Program-made: the position numbers and the translations under genes
In this document: one piece after another, positions 27,107 through 41,683 of the stretch
Position numbering within the stretch: position 1 is the stretch's first letter
How the letters are laid out: each line of letters opens with the position of its first letter
NCBI GenBank assembly: GCA_029863705.1
Contig: JAOTUU010000007.1
Coordinates: forward strand, 1 to 43,607
Reading direction: 5' to 3'
Source of the DNA: Gammaproteobacteria bacterium
GTDB taxonomy: Bacteria; Pseudomonadota; Gammaproteobacteria; Steroidobacterales; Woeseiaceae
Length of the DNA: 43,607 nt
The notes under the pieces: model-generated
What the model was told of the DNA's origin: nothing
Databases searched by the model: none
What the model saw: the letters and a program-made list of their open reading frames with translations, nothing else

Positions 27107-28483
27107 ATGCCGACTCGCTCCGGACCTGTCTATGAAGTCTCCTTTATCGTAGACGCGAGTGTCCGCGATGACTTCGACAACTGGCTCCGCGAGCACGTTA
27201 GCGAAATAAGCCATGTAGCTGGCATCGCAGATTGCAGCTATTTCCCAATGGCAGGTCGTGACGACGGGCGCAGCGGCTGCGTGTGTCTTTATGTTTTCGA
27301 CAGCGATGATGCCCTGGACAATTTTCTGGAGGGTGTCGGCACCGATATACCAAGCGATGTAACGTCCCGGTTCCGAGGTCTGGTTACGACCGCAGCTCGT
27401 GTTCTCAGAGAGGACAGCACTCTCGATCTGGCGCCGGCAGAGTCAGCCGATTGCCTTAACTGCGGGACACGGCTGAAAGGGCAATATTGCGGCAATTGTG
27501 GGCAACGGTCCCGCAGTAGGCTGATTAGTCTCTGGGAACTGATCAGCGATGCCTTCGGCGACCTGTTTGAGCTCGACTCTCGCCTTTGGCAAACACTGGT
27601 TCCTCTGATGATTCGGCCGGGTCAGCTAACCCACGATTACCTGCAAGGGCGACGCGCGCGTTACATGCCGCCCTTTCGCATGTACCTCGTCCTGAGCCTG
27701 CTGTTCTTCGTAATTGCCTTTTTCGACCCGCGCGAGGAGCTTGGTTTGCTCTTTGAGCCCCAGCCGGAGCAAACCAGCGCCGCCGCAGCTGATGGCGAGA
27801 TTGCTGTGCCGGATGAGGCAATTGATGAAGCTCAACAGGTCCTCGACGAACTCGCAGCAGATGGTGTTCTGCCGGATGTAGAATTATCTGAAACTGCCGA
27901 TACCCATGGCGGCGGTTTCATCCTCAAGCTCGACGACGACGGTGAGGAAATCGAGGTCGACGGTGATTGCGACGTTGAGTCCTCGGAGCTTGAGGAACTG
28001 CCTGGCTGGATCGCCCGGCGCTTAACCCCGGAACGCCTGAAGCGCATCTGCGAAAAAACCCAGATTGATGGCGGTAAGGCATTCGTAGACAAACTGGTCG
28101 ACAATATTCCAGCCGCCTTGATCGTCCTGTTGCCGTTGATGGCACTCGTATTGAAAGCTTTGTATCCATTATCCAAACGCTATTATGTCGAGCATTTGCT
28201 GTTCTTCGTGCATTTTCACGCGTTCTTCTTCCTCATCCTGACGCTGCAAATTTTGTTGATGCGAATATCGACAATGCTCGTCATACCCGAGGCGATACCT
28301 ATAGTGACCGTTGTTGTCACGTCATTCTATGTGCCGGTGTATCTATTCAAATCGATGCGGCAGGTCTATGGGCAAGGCTGGTTCGTGTCCTTGCTCAAAT
28401 TCGTTGTTCTCGTGTTTTCCTACCTGATCGGCTTTTTCGCCACAATGATGGGGGCGCTCGCGATCGCCGCATTTTCGATATAA
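27107..28483 (+). CDS. DUF4286-like N-terminal domain fused to DUF3667-like zinc-ribbon membrane domain
   Basis: N-terminus MPTRSGPVYEVSFIVDASVRDDFDNWLREHVSEISHVAGIADCSYF; zinc ribbon CLNCGTRLKGQYCGNCGQR; FELDSRLWQTLVPLMIRPGQLTHDYLQGRRARYMPPFRMYLVLSLLFF. Confidence 0.65.
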   Translation: MPTRSGPVYEVSFIVDASVRDDFDNWLREHVSEISHVAGIADCSYFPMAGRDDGRSGCVCLYVFDSDDALDNFLEGVGTDIPSDVTSRFRGLVTTAARVLREDSTLDLAPAESADCLNCGTRLKGQYCGNCGQRSRSRLISLWELISDAFGDLFELDSRLWQTLVPLMIRPGQLTHDYLQGRRARYMPPFRMYLVLSLLFFVIAFFDPREELGLLFEPQPEQTSAAAADGEIAVPDEAIDEAQQVLDELAADGVLPDVELSETADTHGGGFILKLDDDGEEIEVDGDCDVESSELEELPGWIARRLTPERLKRICEKTQIDGGKAFVDKLVDNIPAALIVLLPLMALVLKALYPLSKRYYVEHLLFFVHFHAFFFLILTLQILLMRISTMLVIPEAIPIVTVVVTSFYVPVYLFKSMRQVYGQGWFVSLLKFVVLVFSYLIGFFATMMGALAIAAFSI

Positions 28484-29072: not shown

Positions 29073-29130
29073 ATGGTTGAGTGATAGCGTCCGGAACACT
29101 AGAATTCCCGGGCTACAGACTTTTCAACTC

Positions 29131-30615
29131 ATGAATCAAACCAGCCAAAATAAGAATATAGGAATAAGCGGACTTGCCGCTTATATACCGCCGTATCGCG
29201 TCTGGCTGGAAGACTGGTGTGGCTGGACGGACAGCCAATGGCCAAAGATCCGCGAGGTCGTTGGGCGCAGCTTTCGGGTGCGTGGTCCGGATCAAAGCGT
29301 CTATACAATGGCCGCGACCGCTGTCATGAGGCTCATCGAGCAGTACGACGTCGATCCGACCCAGATCAAGTTCCTTGGACTGGGCACGGAGTCGAGCACC
29401 GACAACTCAGCCGGCGCAATTATCGTCAAAGGCATGATCGACCGGGCCCTCATTGCTCGTGGCAAAGCCCCGATTGCAAGAAGCTGCGAGGTCCCTGAGT
29501 TCAAGCACGCCTGTCTGGGCGGCGTCTATGGCATGAAGGGCGCCATTCGACACCTCGCACTTGATGGCGCCGGTGGGCAGGCAATCGTCGTTTGCGCTGA
29601 CATCGCCGAATACGCGCGCGGCTCCAGCGGCGCACCGACACAGGGCGCCGGAGCGGTAGCGATGCTGCTTGAGGAAGACCCAAAACTGGCCATTGTCGAT
29701 CTTCCCGCGTCGGGGTCGGCATCGGACTACCGGATCATGGACTTCCGTAAACCGATGTCACGTTTTTGTGGGCAAAGTCGCGCTGAGACGCACCAGGTTC
29801 AGGACTTCCCGGTTTTCAATGGCAAGTACTCGACAACCTGTTACATCGACGAAACGCTGCACGCACTGAATGACATGTATACGAAACGGGGCATCAATGC
29901 CGCCGAATACATGCGCTCATTACGGACTGTATTCATGCATCGACCCTATCGGCGCATGCCCGAAACCGGTTGGGCTATCTCTTACCTGTTCGGGCTCAGC
30001 CAGGGCGACGCCGAAGATCGTGCAGAGCTGGCTTCGTATTGTTATGAGGCGGGCATCGATGCTGCCGCGCTGCACAGTGAAATGATCAGCACACCGGATG
30101 TGGCTCAGCTTGCCAATGCCGAGCAGCTGCAATTTGAGGTGTATCCCCTGACGATGGCCGTGCATAAAGTTTTTCGTGCATCACGCCGCTATCGACGAGA
30201 AATTCTCGACAAGCTCGCGCTCGGCAGTGACACGATGCTCGATCTCGGCAACCTGTATACGGCCGCGCTCCCTGCCTGGATGGCTGCCGGTTTCGAACAA
30301 GCGCTCGATGAAGATTCGCTCGCGGCGGGTGAGGAAGTACTAACGCTCGGTTATGGCAGTGGAGACGCGGCAGAGGTTATTCCGTTCTTCATGGCTGAAG
30401 GGTGGCGCGAGGCCACCGCAGCAATTCGTTTCAGTGAGGCAATGGACTTCACGATCGACCTCAACGCTGATCAATACGCGGCACTGCACGATGGCCGCCG
30501 CGTCAATGGCCTCGACTACGTCCCAAGAGACGAATTCGTGATTGATCGTGTAGGTGTTGCCGACGAACGGCACTTCAGCGACATGGGAATCGAATACTAC
30601 AAGTACGTGAGCTAG
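29131..30615 (+). CDS. Hydroxymethylglutaryl-CoA synthase
   Basis: GLAAYIPPYRV, GLGTESSTDNSAGA, catalytic Cys motif EFKHACLGGVYGMKGAIRHL. Start at ATG 29131. Confidence 0.88.
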   Translation: MNQTSQNKNIGISGLAAYIPPYRVWLEDWCGWTDSQWPKIREVVGRSFRVRGPDQSVYTMAATAVMRLIEQYDVDPTQIKFLGLGTESSTDNSAGAIIVKGMIDRALIARGKAPIARSCEVPEFKHACLGGVYGMKGAIRHLALDGAGGQAIVVCADIAEYARGSSGAPTQGAGAVAMLLEEDPKLAIVDLPASGSASDYRIMDFRKPMSRFCGQSRAETHQVQDFPVFNGKYSTTCYIDETLHALNDMYTKRGINAAEYMRSLRTVFMHRPYRRMPETGWAISYLFGLSQGDAEDRAELASYCYEAGIDAAALHSEMISTPDVAQLANAEQLQFEVYPLTMAVHKVFRASRRYRREILDKLALGSDTMLDLGNLYTAALPAWMAAGFEQALDEDSLAAGEEVLTLGYGSGDAAEVIPFFMAEGWREATAAIRFSEAMDFTIDLNADQYAALHDGRRVNGLDYVPRDEFVIDRVGVADERHFSDMGIEYYKYVS

Positions 30616-31184
30616 TCGCCGCAGTAGTTTTCGAGCATTCCCTTGTGCTCCGTCAGGAGCGTTTGCCACTCCATTTTGAACCACGGCGTAAACCGCTCCG
30701 GTGACGCATCCATTTCAGTAGCCAGCGCCTCGGCCGAAACATAACGGATGTCGGCGATCTCGTGGGCGTTTGCCCGCACCGATTCCCCAACCTTACCAAG
30801 ATAAACCTGGCACAGCTCATGCTCGGATCCGAGGTCGCTATATCTGGCCTCATAACTGAATTTGTAGACGTACTCGAGCGATGTTTCGATGTTCAGTTCG
30901 TCCAGCAACCGGCGCTGCGTTGCCACTTGCATCGACTCCCCGCGGCGAGGGTGGCTACAACAGCTGTTTGACCAGAAACCCGGCCACAGCCGCTTCGACT
31001 GACTACGCTGTTGCAGCAACAGCTCACCTTTGTCATTGAAAAGAAACAGGGAAAACGCGCGGTGCAACACACCGGCTCCATCGTGGCAATCAGCTTTGGG
31101 CAGGAAGCCGATTTCGTTATCGTCAGCATCGACAAGAATCAACTCTTCGGCCTCGGACGACACAATTCGATGTGCGCTATTCAC
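30612..31184 (-). CDS. idi: Isopentenyl-diphosphate delta-isomerase, type 1 (Nudix)
   Basis: LHRAFSLFLFNDKGELLLQQRSQSKRLWPGFWSNSCCSHPRRGESMQVATQRRLLDEL. Confidence 0.92.
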   Translation of the reverse strand: MNSAHRIVSSEAEELILVDADDNEIGFLPKADCHDGAGVLHRAFSLFLFNDKGELLLQQRSQSKRLWPGFWSNSCCSHPRRGESMQVATQRRLLDELNIETSLEYVYKFSYEARYSDLGSEHELCQVYLGKVGESVRANAHEIADIRYVSAEALATEMDASPERFTPWFKMEWQTLLTEHKGMLENYCGD

Positions 31185-31197
31185 TCCCCACCTCTTC

Positions 31198-33408
31198 TTA
31201 TTGGCTCAGATTCAGGGTTTTGAACCCCGCCGATGCAAGTGCACTACGAACCTCTGGGACTCTGCCAGGGCAAAGCGCAATAATCGAACCGCCACCACCA
31301 CCACCGGTCAACTTGGCTCCACTTGCGCCTGCCGATCGAGCTATCTGTACCATGCCCTCAAGCTCGGCCGTCGAAACCTGGATAGCACTCAGTAGTCCCT
31401 GGCAGATATTCATTAGCATGCCGAGCTCCGCATAATCAGCCCTGACGAGTGCGTTAGCGCCAGCCTGGCTCAACACGTCGATTTCATCGAACAATGCCTC
31501 ATAACGTGCCGGGTGTTCATCGTGTCGCGCACGAACACCGGCAACCTGTTCGACGGTCAACCCGGGCGAGCTGCTACAGGCGATGATGATCGGTGGCGGC
31601 TCCGGCAGTGCAAGATGCTCGACATGCAGCGACTCGGCATTACGAAATGTCATCGGAACCGCATAGGTCGCTATCGTGTTATCGATGCCCGATGGCGTAC
31701 CGTGTGCGAGCTTCTCGCACTCGAACGCGATCGCGTTTACCCGCGAATCATCCAAACCCAACTCAAGCTCCGCATCAAACGCACGCACGATAGCTACGGC
31801 GAGAGCAGCGGATGACCCCAGTCCCATCGCCCGAGGCAAATCCGAGCGCAGGTGAATCTCGTATCCCGGTCCCGCGACATCGAGTTCACGAAGAATCAGA
31901 TTCAGCGCTGCGGCAATACCAGAGGAATCGTCGGCGTCAACCCGCTCAGAGACGCCCCATTCCGGTATCGATATGTTGACACCAGCATCACTCTTGCTGA
32001 CCTGTGCCGACACCGCGTCGGGTATGGGCAATGCCAGCGCGTGTCGGCCATAAACAACGGCGTGTTCGCCAAGCAAAATAACTTTGCCCGCCGCTGTTGC
32101 GCATGATTCGCGCCGCTGCGATATCAGATGCCGTCCGGCTAATATTTCTTGTGCCTTCTGCACCTTGATATCACCGCTGGCAATCAGTTCGTTCAGTACC
32201 TCGTCGAAACACTCGTCCGGCACACCGGCGGTCGCGGCGACACTACGCGCGTGCAAGCGCATATGTCCGTCCTGAATGCCCGTCGTCGCCAGCGCCTTCA
32301 AAGCTGCAAAATTCTGGGCCAATCCGACGGCCGCCATCAATTCAGCAAGCTCGATTGCCGACTCCACGCCGGCCAATCGGATTGCCGCTGCCACCGCAGG
32401 ATTTGCGTCCAGGTTGCCACCCACAACCCCCACTTTCAGCGGAATCTCGATGTCACCCTGGAGTTCGCCGTTGTCGGCGACGGACCAGGTTGTGAGCGGT
32501 TTATAGGTGCCTGTTAGTGCTGCGAACGCATGTGCACCGGCCTCAATCGCCCGCCAATCGTTGCCGGTCGCAATGGCGACAGCATCCACGCCGTTCATGA
32601 CACCCTTGTTGTGGGTCGCCGCGCGATAAGGGTCTGCGCCAGCGATTTGGCTGGCAAGCACAATACGATCACGAACCTGGTCTCCGCTGGTATCACCCGT
32701 GGCAAGATCAGCGGGCCGGTATCGAACTCGTGCTGATACCAGAGACCTGTCGGCGAGATTCGAAAGGATTGCCAACGCAACTCTACCACCACAAAGTTCC
32801 GCAATTTGCGACGCTACTGCCTCGCAAATCGTATTGACCAGGTTAGCTCCCATCGCATCGCAGGTATCAACCAGCATGTGTACAGCAATCGCGGTGGTGT
32901 CATCGTCTAGCGATATTAATCGCGACACGACCTCCCGGACACCGCCGCCGCGAGTAACGAGCCTAGGATGAACCGCGTTAGCCCGTTCGAGCAACTCGGC
33001 GCTGGCCGAATTCAGCTTGGATAGCGCCAATTCCGTGTCGTCGACGTTCGTGACGTGTATTTGTCCGACAAGCAATGACTCGGAACAAGATGCGGTGAAC
33101 CCGCCTGAACTGCGCGCCAATCGCGCGGCATTACTCGTGGCGGCAACTATCGAGGGTTCCTCGACAACCATCGGCACGATGTAATCCTGATCGTTGACGA
33201 CGAAATTGGGCGCGACCGCCATGGGCAAACCGAAAACGCCAACGACATTCTCGATCATCCTATCCGCTACAGCAGGCGGCAGTACGTGCTTGCCCTGCTG
33301 CAACAGCTCCGCATCTGCAGCCGACAACCATCCCTGTTGCTCGAGTGCTCGAATGCGCTCGGCAATGCTTAGCCGGTAGAGACCTTTGATTCGGGAATCG
33401 CTCAACAA
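31198..33408 (-). CDS. Fusion protein: class II HMG-CoA reductase (about aa 1-430) and mevalonate kinase (about aa 437-736)
   Basis: HMGR: ENVVGVFGLPMAVAPNFVVN, EEPSIVAATSNAA, DTCDAMGANLVN, HNKGVMNGVDAV, DGHMRLHARS. MK: AAGKVILLGEHAVVYG, PRAMGLGSSAALAVA, GTPSGIDNTIATY, AKLTGGGGGGSIIALC. Single uninterrupted frame. Confidence 0.93.
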   Translation of the reverse strand: MLSDSRIKGLYRLSIAERIRALEQQGWLSAADAELLQQGKHVLPPAVADRMIENVVGVFGLPMAVAPNFVVNDQDYIVPMVVEEPSIVAATSNAARLARSSGGFTASCSESLLVGQIHVTNVDDTELALSKLNSASAELLERANAVHPRLVTRGGGVREVVSRLISLDDDTTAIAVHMLVDTCDAMGANLVNTICEAVASQIAELCGGRVALAILSNLADRSLVSARVRYRPADLATGDTSGDQVRDRIVLASQIAGADPYRAATHNKGVMNGVDAVAIATGNDWRAIEAGAHAFAALTGTYKPLTTWSVADNGELQGDIEIPLKVGVVGGNLDANPAVAAAIRLAGVESAIELAELMAAVGLAQNFAALKALATTGIQDGHMRLHARSVAATAGVPDECFDEVLNELIASGDIKVQKAQEILAGRHLISQRRESCATAAGKVILLGEHAVVYGRHALALPIPDAVSAQVSKSDAGVNISIPEWGVSERVDADDSSGIAAALNLILRELDVAGPGYEIHLRSDLPRAMGLGSSAALAVAIVRAFDAELELGLDDSRVNAIAFECEKLAHGTPSGIDNTIATYAVPMTFRNAESLHVEHLALPEPPPIIIACSSSPGLTVEQVAGVRARHDEHPARYEALFDEIDVLSQAGANALVRADYAELGMLMNICQGLLSAIQVSTAELEGMVQIARSAGASGAKLTGGGGGGSIIALCPGRVPEVRSALASAGFKTLNLSQ

Positions 33409-34406
33409 AGTTGTCCTGTGACCTGCACGCCGAGTGGATCGGCGCTTACTGCAAGGTGCCGGAAATTTTGTTCTTTTGCACGATCAATAAATTCAATAAT
33501 CGATTCTGCGTCGCTGGACAGGACGATTCCGATATCGCCGCCACCTGCGCCACAGGGTTTGTAGACAAGGCCTGCCGTTTCAGCTGCCGCCACCATCTCT
33601 GCATGACCGGCGTCAAAAATGCCGAGTTCATGATCGTTGCTGAATTCCCGCAGCACCTGGATATAATCCCGATACTCAAACAGAACTTTCTGCGCGTTAC
33701 CACTGCCCCAGGCCGACGCCACGCGCCTTGATGCGTACATGAGCGCGGCTCGCGACGGCCGCGGGTCACTCTTGATGAGGTGTTTCAGTTTGGCACTGGT
33801 ACTTGCTGGAACACCGCTCCAAAACAGGCCGAAAACCAGGCCGTCCGGCCAAGCGACAGGGTGGCCGGTACCTTCGCCCATCGTGTACTCGATCAGCCCC
33901 CCGCGGCTGCAGCACGCTATGTCCACGCCGCTACCCAGACCTTTCTGAAACGCTCGATGCGCGGCGAAAGCGATCCTGCTGGCGTCTTCATCAACATCGC
34001 CCACATGGCACAACGCAGCAGCGAATGCGGTCATCAACGCGGCACTGGAGCCGATACCAATTTTGGCACCACTTTCCGCGTCGACGAAGTCGCTTGTGTC
34101 CAGGCGAATCGAAAAGTGCCTGTTTGTTTCGACGTAGGCGGTTCGCCACAGGTCTTCCACCAGTTTGAAGTCCTCACCGCCTGCCAGCCATTCCACCACA
34201 CCATCCGCGACCCTGAAACGAGCCGTCGACTCCGCATGGCCGGGCGCCGCAACGACGTGATGTTCTTCATTGTTGTTTTCGACCGTAACTCGTGCACGGC
34301 GATCGACAGCCATGCACACGGCCGGCGCACCGTCGAGAACCGCGTACTCACCAGACAAAACTACCTTGCCAGGTGCGCTTGCCACTATCGGCATTGCGTC
34401 GCTCAT
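33402..34406 (-). CDS. Phosphomevalonate kinase (GHMP kinase)
   Basis: SAPGKVVLSGEYAVLDGAPAVCMAVDRRA, GIGSSAALMTAFAAAL, GLGSGVDIACCSRGGLIEY, KPCGAGGGDIGIVL. Confidence 0.85.
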   Translation of the reverse strand: MSDAMPIVASAPGKVVLSGEYAVLDGAPAVCMAVDRRARVTVENNNEEHHVVAAPGHAESTARFRVADGVVEWLAGGEDFKLVEDLWRTAYVETNRHFSIRLDTSDFVDAESGAKIGIGSSAALMTAFAAALCHVGDVDEDASRIAFAAHRAFQKGLGSGVDIACCSRGGLIEYTMGEGTGHPVAWPDGLVFGLFWSGVPASTSAKLKHLIKSDPRPSRAALMYASRRVASAWGSGNAQKVLFEYRDYIQVLREFSNDHELGIFDAGHAEMVAAAETAGLVYKPCGAGGGDIGIVLSSDAESIIEFIDRAKEQNFRHLAVSADPLGVQVTGQLC

Positions 34407-35365
34407 GCAGTCGACTCCAATGCAGCGCCTTCGCCGAGACCACTAAGCATGACGGCTTCGACGCCCGTCGTTTCCGCCAGCGCTACGTGAACTTGCGACA
34501 CGGCTTCGGGCGTACAAACGGCCTTTACCTGCGGCCCCGCATCGATCGTAAAAAATACCGGCACGCCATCTTCCTGCAAATTCCTTATCGTCTGCATGCA
34601 AGCCAGCGTCACACTATTCCAGTAAATCATCGGTGGACGCGAACCCCACATTACCGAGTGCATCTTCAGGCAGTTGTGTTCGGCGACCGTGGCCAGGGCG
34701 GAAAAATCCCGGCCGGCAATAGCCTCGCGCGCAGCTGCCAGATCCTGCGGCTGCTGCTCTACCCAACGCTCGAAAAATGGTGATGTCTTGCGGCTGATTT
34801 CCATCGCCTCGGTCGAACCAACGGGCTTGGGTCCTGTTGCCGTAATGGCGACCACAACCTGTAGCGGCCAATCGGCGGCCGCCCTCAGGCTGGATACTGA
34901 AACGTCCCGGGGACGATTCTCCAGTTCGACGAAGCCGCCGTACAACGACCTTGCTGCAGAACCGGATGCACGACCGGCGAGGCTCGCCAACTCATCGGTG
35001 CTTCGTTTTCGCTCTGCCAATGCATCAGCCGCAACGGTGAGCGCAGCAAACGCAGACGCCGAGGACGCAAGGCCCGCAGCAATCGGGAAATTGCACTGGC
35101 TCGTCACGCGCACCGGGCGGCGTCGCGCACCGAGCACGGTGCCGAGGCATCGCTGGATCCTTGGCAACATTCCGCCATCTGCCTGGCCGTTAATAATCAA
35201 CTCATCGTCAAGTAACGTGTCGTCGTATTCGACGCACATGGTCGTATACAGTTCGGCAAGCGTTACCGAAATCGAACCAACCGCGGGGAGGTTACGACCT
35301 GCGTCGCGCTTCCCCCAATACTTGATCAATGCGATATTCGGTTGGGCTCTGGCTATTGCCCGCAT
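34403..35365 (-). CDS. mvaD: Diphosphomevalonate decarboxylase
   Basis: ARAQPNIALIKYWGKRDAGRNLPAVGSISVTL, QCNFPIAAGLASSASAFAALTVAA, SGSAARSLYGGFVELE, FFTIDAGPQVKAVC. Confidence 0.9.
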   Translation of the reverse strand: MRAIARAQPNIALIKYWGKRDAGRNLPAVGSISVTLAELYTTMCVEYDDTLLDDELIINGQADGGMLPRIQRCLGTVLGARRRPVRVTSQCNFPIAAGLASSASAFAALTVAADALAERKRSTDELASLAGRASGSAARSLYGGFVELENRPRDVSVSSLRAAADWPLQVVVAITATGPKPVGSTEAMEISRKTSPFFERWVEQQPQDLAAAREAIAGRDFSALATVAEHNCLKMHSVMWGSRPPMIYWNSVTLACMQTIRNLQEDGVPVFFTIDAGPQVKAVCTPEAVSQVHVALAETTGVEAVMLSGLGEGAALESTA

Positions 35366-35462: not shown

Positions 35463-36365
35463 GTGGAACGACCTTTGTCAGTATTGTTCGAGAATCGCAT
35501 AGCGCACTACACCGAGCGCGTGGCATTAAAGCTGGATGAGGTTCTGCCGCCATCCTCGCAGGAACCGGAGCGCTTGCACGACGCGATGCGCTACGCCGTG
35601 TTCAACGGTGGCAAGCGGGTTCGGCCATTACTCGTATACGCGGCCGGGGAGTGTCTCGGCTTGCAGGAGAGCTTGCTGGATGCGCCTGCCGCGGCAATCG
35701 AACTCGTTCACGCCTTTTCTCTGGTGCACGACGATCTTCCCGCAATGGACGATGACGACCTGCGACGTGGCAAGCCAACGCTGCACCGAAAATACGATGA
35801 AGCCACCGCCATACTCGCCGCCGACGCGTTGCAGCCATTGGCTTTCAGCGTCCTCGCCAACGCCAGCGGCGTCGCACCCGCGACGCGAATCAGGCTCGTC
35901 AAGCTCCTCGCGGATGCCTGCGGATCCATCGGCATGACAGGCGGGCAGTCGCTCGATCTGGCTGCTGAAGGACAGTCACTCGACGCTGCACAAATCGAGC
36001 ACATGTACGAACTGAAGACCGGCGCGCTGATTCACGCGTCGGTTGTGTCAGCGTCAGCGATATGCGCTGATTTATCTGCCGAACGTAGCTCGGCCCTCGA
36101 TGCGTTCGGACGCACGATCGGTATCGCATTTCAAATCAAGGATGACATCCTTGATGTTGAAGGAACAACGGAAATCATCGGCAAGCCATCCGGATCCGAC
36201 CAGCGCCTCGACAAAGCGACCTTTCCCGGACGGGTAGGCATCGCGGATGCGCGACAACGTTGTGACGAATTGCTGAACGGCGCATTGCAACATCTCGACG
36301 ATTTCGGTACCGACGCCGAACCATTGAGCTGGCTTGCCCGCTTCATTGTTGAGCGTGGCAACTAA
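35463..36365 (+). CDS. ispA: Polyprenyl synthetase (geranyl/farnesyl diphosphate synthase)
   Basis: GGKRVRPLLVYAAGE, LVHDDLPAMDDDDLRRGKPTLHRKYDEA (first Asp-rich motif), FQIKDDILDVEG (second). GTG start. Confidence 0.92.
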   Translation: MERPLSVLFENRIAHYTERVALKLDEVLPPSSQEPERLHDAMRYAVFNGGKRVRPLLVYAAGECLGLQESLLDAPAAAIELVHAFSLVHDDLPAMDDDDLRRGKPTLHRKYDEATAILAADALQPLAFSVLANASGVAPATRIRLVKLLADACGSIGMTGGQSLDLAAEGQSLDAAQIEHMYELKTGALIHASVVSASAICADLSAERSSALDAFGRTIGIAFQIKDDILDVEGTTEIIGKPSGSDQRLDKATFPGRVGIADARQRCDELLNGALQHLDDFGTDAEPLSWLARFIVERGN

Positions 36366-39856: not shown

Positions 39857-41683
39857 TTGGCTGACACCGTTACCAAGTATCTGGACGGCGCCGCCCTTGC
39901 TGACGCGCTCACATCGGGTATCCACAAGGTAATCGGTGCACAGGAATTTCTTAATCGCATAAACGTCTTTCCAGTCGCAGATGGTGATACCGGCACCAAC
40001 CTGAGTTTGTCACTTGGCGCCGCCCTGGCCACAATCAAGCAGTCCCGGGACAAACACCTGGGCACCCTGTTAGCGGCGATAGCCGATACGCTGCTGGATA
40101 GCGCTCGCGGTAACTCCGGCGCCATCCTCGCCCAGTTTTTTCAGGGCATGAGCGATTCGGCCGGCGAATTGACGCGTTTTACAACGTACACGTTTAGCAA
40201 AGCCGTGCACCTGGGCAGCGACTATGCCCATGATGCGCTGTCGAACCCTCGCGAAGGCACAATTCTGTCAGTTATGGCCACATTCGCCGAATCCCTCGGT
40301 GCGCAGGCCAGCAATAACCACGAAGGTGACTTCCCAACGGTAATGAAGAGTGCGCTGCAACAGGCGAAAATCGCCTTGGCCAATACACAGGAGCAACTCG
40401 ATGAGTTGCGCAAAGCGGGCGTTGTGGATGCGGGAGCGAAAGGCTTCGTCGAACTCGTGCACGGCATGGCCGATTACGTTCGTCATGGGCGAATTGCCGA
40501 AGAGCCCGACCTAACCGTACTTCACGGTGAAGACGTATCTATGTTGACGGTCGGCTCTGGTGCAGACTCGGAGTACCGTTACTGTACGGAATGTCTTGTC
40601 ACGGGACTGGACATTGATCGGCGCAAGCTACGCGAGGCGCTGTCCGAACTCGGCAATTCCCTGGTGCTCGCCGGCACCAAACGCAAGGCCAAGATCCATA
40701 TTCACGTCAACGATCCGGAGACTGTATTCGATACCGGTCGTGAATACGGCGACGTTAGCGGCGAGAAAGCGGACGACATGCATCGTCAGCTACACACCAG
40801 CCACGATGCAAAGCGTAAATTTGCCGTGATTACAGACTCGGTTGCCGACATTGCCGACGAGGATATGGAGCGCCTGGATATACACATCGTGCCCGCTCGA
40901 ATCCAATTCGGAAATCGCGGCTATCTCGATAAGGTCAGCATCACGACGGAGGAATTCTTTGCCGAACTCTCCACCAATCCGAACCACCCGACAACGTCGC
41001 AACCATCGCCAGGCGATTTCCGCCGTCAGTTTCAATTTCTCGCAAGCCATTTTTCGGACGTAATCTCTATCAACCTGACTGCCGCAGCCAGCGGCACGTT
41101 TGCCGCAGCAAAACTCGCTGCCACAAGAACCAACGCTCGCGGAAAAATCCACGTTATCAACTCTTCGAATGCATCAGCAGGCCAGGGACTACTCGTCGTC
41201 TTCGCCGCCGAATGTGCAAAATCTGGTGCGAGTGCAGAGAAAACGGTGGCGGCAGTTGAGGCACTGGTACCGAAAACACGCACCTTCGCGATTCTCGCAG
41301 ATTTGCGCTATGCCGTACGTGGCGGCCGCCTTCCCGCCTGGGTAAAGACAATTGCCGATGTACTACGGCTCGTACCAATACTTCGAACGACAACAGACGG
41401 TCGAATAGCGACTGCCAGTTTCATGCTCGGCAAACGAAACCGCATAGCGCGTTTCGTGCGCCATGTTGCTCGCCGGGTTGCAAACGATGGCGCCCTGAAC
41501 GTAACTATCGCTCACGCAGTTTGTCCGGATGATGCGGCCGAACTCGAGCATTACCTTCGCGAGCAAATTGCCGATATCTCTCGCCTGTCGATAACCAACC
41601 TTGGCACTGGTTTGGGTGTTCACGGTGGCCCGGGCACATTGATAGTCTCGACACAGCCGCACACCGAGCCACCAATAGGCTAG
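39857..41683 (+). CDS. DAK2 (FakA-like kinase) - FakA middle domain - DegV (FakB-like fatty-acid-binding) fusion protein
   Basis: NRINVFPVADGDTGTNLSLSLGAAL, SARGNSGAILAQFFQGM (DAK2); YRYCTECLVTG...IHIHVNDPETVFDTGREYGDVSGEKADDMHRQ (FakA middle); FAVITDSVADI...PTTSQPSPGDF (DegV). TTG start (upstream in-frame TGA). Confidence 0.85.
   Translation: MADTVTKYLDGAALADALTSGIHKVIGAQEFLNRINVFPVADGDTGTNLSLSLGAALATIKQSRDKHLGTLLAAIADTLLDSARGNSGAILAQFFQGMSDSAGELTRFTTYTFSKAVHLGSDYAHDALSNPREGTILSVMATFAESLGAQASNNHEGDFPTVMKSALQQAKIALANTQEQLDELRKAGVVDAGAKGFVELVHGMADYVRHGRIAEEPDLTVLHGEDVSMLTVGSGADSEYRYCTECLVTGLDIDRRKLREALSELGNSLVLAGTKRKAKIHIHVNDPETVFDTGREYGDVSGEKADDMHRQLHTSHDAKRKFAVITDSVADIADEDMERLDIHIVPARIQFGNRGYLDKVSITTEEFFAELSTNPNHPTTSQPSPGDFRRQFQFLASHFSDVISINLTAAASGTFAAAKLAATRTNARGKIHVINSSNASAGQGLLVVFAAECAKSGASAEKTVAAVEALVPKTRTFAILADLRYAVRGGRLPAWVKTIADVLRLVPILRTTTDGRIATASFMLGKRNRIARFVRHVARRVANDGALNVTIAHAVCPDDAAELEHYLREQIADISRLSITNLGTGLGVHGGPGTLIVSTQPHTEPPIG

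What the first reader, a model, noticed from the sequence alone, without database searches (positions are those of the whole stretch)
31198..33408. In-frame fusion of class II HMG-CoA reductase to mevalonate kinase
One uninterrupted 736-aa frame carries a complete HMGR domain (catalytic Glu, Lys, Asp and His motifs present) and a complete GHMP mevalonate kinase domain (all three motifs). The enzymes catalyse consecutive steps, so the fusion could couple or channel mevalonate. The junction (about 32090-32130) has only a few linker residues, and no in-frame ATG/GTG/TTG was seen there that would yield a separate kinase. The known bacterial fusion in this pathway that I recall is thiolase-HMGR (MvaE); I do not know of a characterised HMGR-MvaK1 fusion.
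Basis: partly seen in the sequence, partly recalled or inferred. Interest (0 to 1): 0.75.

Follow-up and report, generated by a model that had tools for sequence, protein, structure and literature searches.

The report
Fused HMG-CoA reductase–mevalonate kinase enzyme
A gammaproteobacterium and many of its relatives make the isoprenoid building block with one protein that joins two consecutive enzymes of the mevalonate pathway (and in one genus apparently three), an arrangement that is real and widespread in genomes but for which I found no published description.

Summary
Confirmed, with corrections. The 736-aa frame lies on the minus strand (31198-33408). It joins a complete class II HMG-CoA reductase (residues 1-425) to a complete GHMP mevalonate kinase (about 435-736) through a short disordered linker. 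The fusion is not an assembly accident. It is stop-free across the window's genus and many gammaproteobacterial families; it is the only HMGR and only mevalonate kinase found in the genome; all 48 fusion-bearing relatives lack Dxr (MEP pathway), while 10 of 12 relatives without it have Dxr. Its cofactor helix (H147, R149, R153) is NADPH-type, so the database label 'degradative' misleads. New here: (1) one genus has PMK-HMGR-MK in a single 1133-aa frame, and one MAG has HMGR-MK-IDI; (2) four relatives, by repeated loss, lack the last two helices of HMGR's mobile flap, so the kinase follows the catalytic-His helix almost directly, whereas 46 stand-alone HMGRs keep them; (3) myxobacteria carry HMGR and MK as adjacent genes, some in frame and parted by one stop codon. 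Best reading: a bifunctional NADPH-dependent HMG-CoA-to-phosphomevalonate enzyme. Proximity and stoichiometry are likely benefits; true channelling is untested.

The parts
31198..33408 (-). HMGR-MK fusion gene, 736 aa, TTG start at 33408, stop 31198-31200
32134..33408 (-). class II HMG-CoA reductase domain, residues 1-425 (flap helices 378-393, 398-411, 416-430 in the model)
   Evidence: Pfam PF00368, TIGR00532; PDB matches over residues 3-426; model m05a9aaa0c52d
32107..32133 (-). linker, residues 426-434; residues 428-434 have pLDDT below 50
   Evidence: alignment of the junction
31201..32106 (-). mevalonate kinase domain, residues 435-736
   Evidence: PF00288, PF08544, TIGR00549; nearest solved relatives 6mde/4hac/8teb
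32263..32265 (-). catalytic His382 on the first flap helix
32950..32970 (-). cofactor helix H147-x-R149-x-x-x-R153, NADPH-type; aligns with D146/L148/L152 of the NADH enzyme of P. mevalonii
32083..32085 (-). kinase Lys442 (GKVILLGEH motif)
31681..31683 (-). kinase Asp576 (HGTPSGIDN motif), presumed catalytic base by homology
33402..34406 (-). phosphomevalonate kinase-like GHMP kinase; its stop overlaps the HMGR start by 7 nt. Assignment rests on best family (TIGR01220, 100 bits, below its 166-bit cut-off) plus position
34403..35365 (-). diphosphomevalonate decarboxylase (4-nt overlap with PMK)
   Evidence: TIGR01240 above cut-off
30612..31184 (-). type 1 isopentenyl-diphosphate isomerase, next gene downstream
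   Evidence: NF002995, TIGR02150 above cut-off
29077..30615 (+). HMG-CoA synthase-like, convergent with the operon
   Evidence: PF01154, PF08540; TIGR01835 below cut-off
35463..36365 (+). farnesyl diphosphate synthase family, divergent from the operon
   Evidence: NF045485 above cut-off

Best explanation
The gene encodes one bifunctional polypeptide that turns HMG-CoA into 5-phosphomevalonate. The N-terminal class II HMGR domain reduces HMG-CoA with two NADPH to mevalonate, and the C-terminal GHMP kinase phosphorylates mevalonate with ATP. It is the only HMGR and the only mevalonate kinase found in the genome and lies on what appears to be its sole isoprenoid route. Linking the two gives a fixed 1:1 ratio and closeness, so that the essentially irreversible kinase step pulls the reversible HMGR step forward and limits free mevalonate. 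The kinase hangs on the end of the mobile flap that carries HMGR's catalytic His. Shown: the single frame, both complete domains, invariant catalytic residues, sole copy, Dxr absence, operon context. Inferred: the two activities, NADPH use, absence of separate products, the kinetic benefit. The fusion probably arose by stop loss between adjacent in-operon genes, an arrangement still seen in myxobacteria.
For: Both domains score above curated equivalog cut-offs. All HMGR catalytic residues in 79/79 fused domains; NADPH-type helix Arg in 79/79 and His in 77/79, versus Asp and mostly Leu in stand-alone NADH-type homologues of other proteobacteria (motif rule from PMC13370337 and PMC10070635). Frame open without stops in the window's genus and in many families; 88 fused loci, some overlapping. 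One HMGR and no second close MK per genome. Dxr absent from all 48 fusion carriers among 60 relatives, present in 10 of 12 non-carriers (Fisher p about 9e-10, not corrected for kinship). Mevalonate operon with overlapping genes. Model: two well-formed domains, mean pLDDT 86, matching P. mevalonii HMGR and M. mazei MK.
Against: No biochemical or protein-level data. The kinase could be partly made from an internal start in some members (GTG416 here, no Shine-Dalgarno). Some lineages (Rhodanobacter, Dyella, two other sampled gammas, one Planctomycetota-labelled MAG) carry both the fusion and Dxr or Dxr-like genes, so sole-route status is not universal. The relative placement of the two domains is not confidently modelled (pTM 0.62).
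Confidence: 0.88

Rival explanations
1. The fusion creates true functional coupling: mevalonate is channelled, or the kinase's state is coupled to opening and closing of the HMGR flap on which it sits.
For: Short, length-constrained spacing between catalytic His and kinase Lys (60-62 aa through most of the order's own family, 53-77 in nearly all others). Repeated loss of flap helices 2 and 3 only in fused members, leaving the kinase Lys 27 aa after the His in L061. PMK added to the same chain in one genus.
Against: The linker is predicted disordered; no conserved inter-domain surface was tested; spacing may just reflect ancestry; proximity and stoichiometry suffice to explain selection.
Confidence: 0.2
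2. The kinase is also, or mainly, made separately by internal initiation or proteolysis, so that the fusion is incidental.
For: GTG codon 416 in the window; weak SD-like sequences before some in-frame start codons in 22 of 88 loci.
Against: No start position or SD is conserved; some members have no in-frame start close to the kinase apart from the ATG of the catalytic GHM motif (L052, L059, L062, L093). Short-flap members leave little room.
Confidence: 0.08
3. The HMGR half works in the degradative direction (mevalonate to HMG-CoA), as the TIGR00532 name 'degradative' suggests.
For: Best NCBIfam name is the degradative HMGR equivalog.
Against: NADPH-type cofactor helix, mevalonate biosynthetic operon, fusion to MK, and absence of Dxr. 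Close solved relatives include the NADPH-bound S. pneumoniae enzyme, so the name covers more than catabolic enzymes.
Confidence: 0.03
4. Assembly error or lost stop in this MAG.
For: The genome is a 402-contig draft with 5.5% contamination.
Against: Same open frame in dozens of independently assembled species, including isolate genomes of Rhodanobacter and Dyella.
Confidence: 0.005

Closest known systems
Class II HMG-CoA reductase of Pseudomonas mevalonii (1qax and others)
   Same: 45-46% identity over the full HMGR length, same catalytic Glu/Lys/Asp/His, same three-helix flap
   Different: Stand-alone and NADH-dependent (D146/L148/L152); here H147/R149/R153 and a kinase on the C-terminus
Streptococcus pneumoniae HMGR (5wpj/5wpk)
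   Same: Class II enzyme solved with NADPH; Y..S...R helix comparable to H..R...R here
   Different: Stand-alone
Methanosarcina mazei mevalonate kinase (6mde, 4hac) and MKbur (8teb)
   Same: Best-scoring solved mevalonate kinases, 30-34% identity, same fold and motifs
   Different: Stand-alone; the M. mazei enzyme is known for feedback resistance (PMC5817203 abstract), not tested here
Enterococcus MvaE (acetoacetyl-CoA thiolase-HMGR)
   Same: A mevalonate-pathway fusion containing class II HMGR (PMC10070635)
   Different: Thiolase is N-terminal and its step is not adjacent to HMGR's; here the partner is C-terminal and catalyses the very next step
Myxobacterial adjacent HMGR and MK genes (Corallococcus, Myxococcus, Pyxidicoccus, Hyalangium)
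   Same: Same order HMGR-MK; in some, same frame with one stop codon between
   Different: Two ORFs; MVD and PMK follow downstream instead of preceding

Membership tests
Class II HMG-CoA reductase | Full-length HMG-CoA_red domain above class II family cut-off | tested here: met
   PF00368 343 bits; TIGR00532 393 bits vs cut-off 260; class I models score only 24-25 bits
Class II HMG-CoA reductase | Catalytic Glu, Lys, Asp, His | tested here: met
   E84, K268, D284, H382; 79/79 fused domains
Class II HMG-CoA reductase | Three-helix C-terminal flap domain | tested here: met
   Helices 378-393, 398-411, 416-430 in the model; lost in four relatives
Class II HMG-CoA reductase | HMGR activity | not testable with these tools
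   needs an enzyme assay
NADH-type (degradative) HMGR | Dx(V/L)xxxL cofactor helix | tested here: not met
   H147, R149, R153 instead
NADPH-type HMGR | (H/Y)xSxxxR cofactor helix | tested here: inconclusive
   His and Arg at the outer positions match, but the middle Ser is Arg here and variable in the fused family
Mevalonate kinase (GHMP superfamily) | Family score above cut-off and three GHMP motifs | tested here: met
   TIGR00549 231 vs 163 bits; GKVILLGEH, GLGSSAA, GAKLTGGGGGG motifs
Mevalonate kinase (GHMP superfamily) | Catalytic Lys and Asp | tested here: met
   K442 and D576 invariant in 41 fused sequences
Mevalonate kinase (GHMP superfamily) | Phosphorylates mevalonate | not testable with these tools
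   needs an enzyme assay
MvaE (thiolase-HMGR fusion) | N-terminal acetoacetyl-CoA thiolase domain | tested here: not met
   No thiolase domain in Pfam or NCBIfam scans

The most novel reading that the evidence does not exclude
A modular mevalonate 'assembly line': an HMGR-MK core that in some bacteria gains PMK at its N-terminus (PMK-HMGR-MK, three consecutive steps from HMG-CoA to mevalonate diphosphate in one chain) or IDI at its C-terminus, and in which the kinase has functionally replaced HMGR's flap helices, coupling HMGR flap motion with the kinase.
Probability: 0.25. Interest if true: 0.8.

Novelty: new variant of a known kind. Interest (0 to 1): 0.5.

Why it matters
HMGR is the classic control point of the mevalonate pathway, and mevalonate kinase is the next step and a common feedback target. 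A natural, old and widespread fusion of the two on the only isoprenoid route of many gammaproteobacteria gives a ready system to ask whether joining these steps changes flux, leakage of mevalonate or inhibition, and it offers a compact enzyme for isoprenoid engineering. The members without flap helices 2 and 3 make a direct test of what those helices do. It also warns that the automatic name 'HMG-CoA reductase, degradative' mislabels a likely biosynthetic enzyme.

Tried and rejected
Assembly artefact or lost stop: rejected by dozens of species with the same frame. Separate kinase from a conserved internal start: no conserved start or SD. Degradative role: rejected on cofactor helix and context. 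Independent fusion events: the HMGR tree with all rows needs two changes of state, but with long-branch rows L047, L115, L123 and the fragment L095 left out the fused set is one side of a branch with support 84, and the MK tree gives one side with 88/89, so a single origin is favoured but not proven. G006's apparent lack of the kinase is just a contig end. Plasmid collection: no fused copy, only partial matches that look like stand-alone HMGRs among those listed. Literature: searches for a described HMGR-MK fusion found none in the open-access library; one evolutionary paper looked up (10.1093/molbev/msy120) was not held.

Full report
What is there. Pfam finds a complete HMG-CoA_red domain (15-387) and both GHMP kinase domains. 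NCBIfam gives class II HMGR (TIGR00532) and mevalonate kinase (TIGR00549), both above curated cut-offs. Solved relatives align over residues 3-426 (HMGR) and about 435-731 (MK), so neither half is truncated and only about 9 residues lie between them. AlphaFold2 with 41 fused sequences gives two well-formed domains (mean pLDDT 86) separated by residues 428-434 with pLDDT below 50; Foldseek matches the halves to P. mevalonii HMGR and to MKbur/M. mazei MK.

Context. The gene sits in a compact minus-strand operon: diphosphomevalonate decarboxylase, a PMK-like kinase, HMGR-MK, IDI, with 4- and 7-nt overlaps between the first three and a 13-nt gap before IDI. An FPP synthase is divergent and an HMG-CoA synthase convergent. 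The same order recurs in most of the fused relatives.

It is real and conserved. Among 60 relatives, 48 carry the gene; in the complete copies it is one frame without stops (57-69% identity in the genus, 48-54% in other families of the order). The few partial copies look like contig ends; for G006 this was checked. In a class-wide sample the fusion appears in further families, while other hits are stand-alone HMGRs; a phylum-wide sample finds only one more fused genome, again in this class. Named records include Woeseiaceae MAGs, Nevskia, isolates of Rhodanobacter and Dyella, and two MAGs labelled Myxococcales and Planctomycetota whose labels I did not verify. The window's genus includes MAGs labelled Woeseiaceae (loci with equal scores and lengths, e.g. 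L013/L053 and L011/L051).

It is functional by genetic logic. No second close HMGR or MK was found in fusion-bearing relatives. Dxr, the MEP-pathway marker, is absent from all 48 fusion-bearing relatives and present in 10 of the 12 without the fusion; the other two are incomplete genomes. Fisher p is about 9e-10, without correction for kinship. Outside this order the rule weakens: Rhodanobacter genomes, Dyella (a below-cut-off match), the Planctomycetota-labelled MAG and two sampled gammas have both. HMGR catalytic residues are present in all 79 fused domains aligned, and kinase K442, E565, D576 and glycine motifs are invariant in 41 sequences.

Cofactor and direction. In class II HMGRs NADH enzymes carry Dx(V/L)xxxL and NADPH enzymes (H/Y)xSxxxR on the cofactor helix (PMC13370337; P. 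mevalonii residues D146, L148, L152 in PMC10070635). The window's H147, R149 and R153 align with those three positions. Arg at the last position is found in 79/79 fused sequences and His at the first in 77/79, whereas the middle Ser is not kept; stand-alone homologues sampled from other proteobacteria (L029-L032, L139-L150) have Asp and mostly Leu, and three of the four tested genomes with such genes carry a full Dxr. I infer NADPH use and a biosynthetic role; the database word 'degradative' does not fit.

Junction. The distance from catalytic His382 to kinase Lys442 is 60 residues; it is 60-62 in most close relatives and 53-77 in all but two of the fused sequences measured. Start codons occur in frame near the junction in many members, including GTG416 here, but no position or Shine-Dalgarno is conserved, and some members have none close to the kinase. 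Four members (L061, L153, L154, L155) have lost flap helices 2 and 3; in L061 the kinase Lys follows the His by 27 residues, and the L061 model shows only the first flap helix before the kinase, with the joint itself poorly modelled. On a tree made without the junction columns these four need three changes, that is, repeated loss. All 46 stand-alone HMGRs that could be measured keep at least 44 residues after the His. Class I HMGRs have only the first flap helix (PMC10070635), so such a minimal flap is workable. I infer that the fused kinase makes the rest of the flap dispensable.

Larger fusions. In the only two genomes held of one genus of the order (G043, G056) PMK, HMGR and MK are one frame (L130: PMK 5-376, HMGR 383-804, MK 827-1129), confirmed by family scans. 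PMK there scores 157 bits against a cut-off of 166. The two genomes differ by 355 synonymous and 45 non-synonymous codons in these domains, with no length difference over 1130 codons, so the joined frame has been kept over real divergence. HMGR could also start at an internal GTG preceded by GGAG, so the triple protein is likely but not certain to be the only product. One MAG (L110) has HMGR-MK-IDI in a single 998-aa frame; this rests on one assembly.

Origin. In myxobacteria HMGR and MK are adjacent separate frames, in some (L096, L097, L099-L102) in the same frame with one stop codon between. A single fusion event is favoured by the MK tree (88/89) and by the HMGR tree once long rows are removed (84), but is not strongly supported.

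Mechanism and limits. I am confident that this is a bifunctional HMG-CoA-to-phosphomevalonate enzyme. The benefit most likely lies in fixed stoichiometry and closeness, so that ATP-driven phosphorylation pulls the reversible HMGR step; that is inference from known chemistry. Channelling or flap coupling is possible but untested. Literature searches in the open-access library found no description, which does not prove that none exists.

Noticed in passing
L130:3665-7063 (+), L129:3561-7799 (-): PMK-HMGR-MK triple fusion in both genomes held of one genus of the same order (1133-aa frame).
   Followed up: yes
L110:7809-10802 (+): HMGR-MK-IDI triple fusion in one uncultured gammaproteobacterial MAG.
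   Followed up: partly
L061:2292-4367, L153:2734-4893, L154:2262-4391, L155:2771-4939: Fused HMGRs that lost flap helices 2 and 3, with the kinase starting right after the catalytic-His helix; the tree needs three changes.
   Followed up: yes
L096:7971-10292, L099:7950-10352: Myxobacterial HMGR and MK in the same frame separated by a single stop codon, a plausible proxy for the pre-fusion state.
   Followed up: partly
Rhodanobacter (L079, L109), Dyella (L086), G098, G789: Genomes that carry both the HMGR-MK fusion and a Dxr or Dxr-like gene; in Dyella the match is below cut-off. Why two routes are kept is unexplained.
   Followed up: no
L088, L090: Fused genes in MAGs labelled Myxococcales and Planctomycetota; L090 has a rearranged order (HMGR-MK, IDI, MVD, PMK). 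Horizontal transfer or mislabelled bins not resolved.
   Followed up: no
29077-30615 (+): The HMG-CoA synthase scores far below its NCBIfam cut-off (160 vs 360 bits), a divergent member.
   Followed up: no
27107-28483 (+): In-frame combination of DUF4286 and DUF3667 in one 458-aa protein.
   Followed up: no
39857-41683 (+): DAK2/FakA-like domains fused to a DegV (FakB-like) domain in one 608-aa protein: both halves of a fatty acid kinase-like pair in one chain.
   Followed up: no
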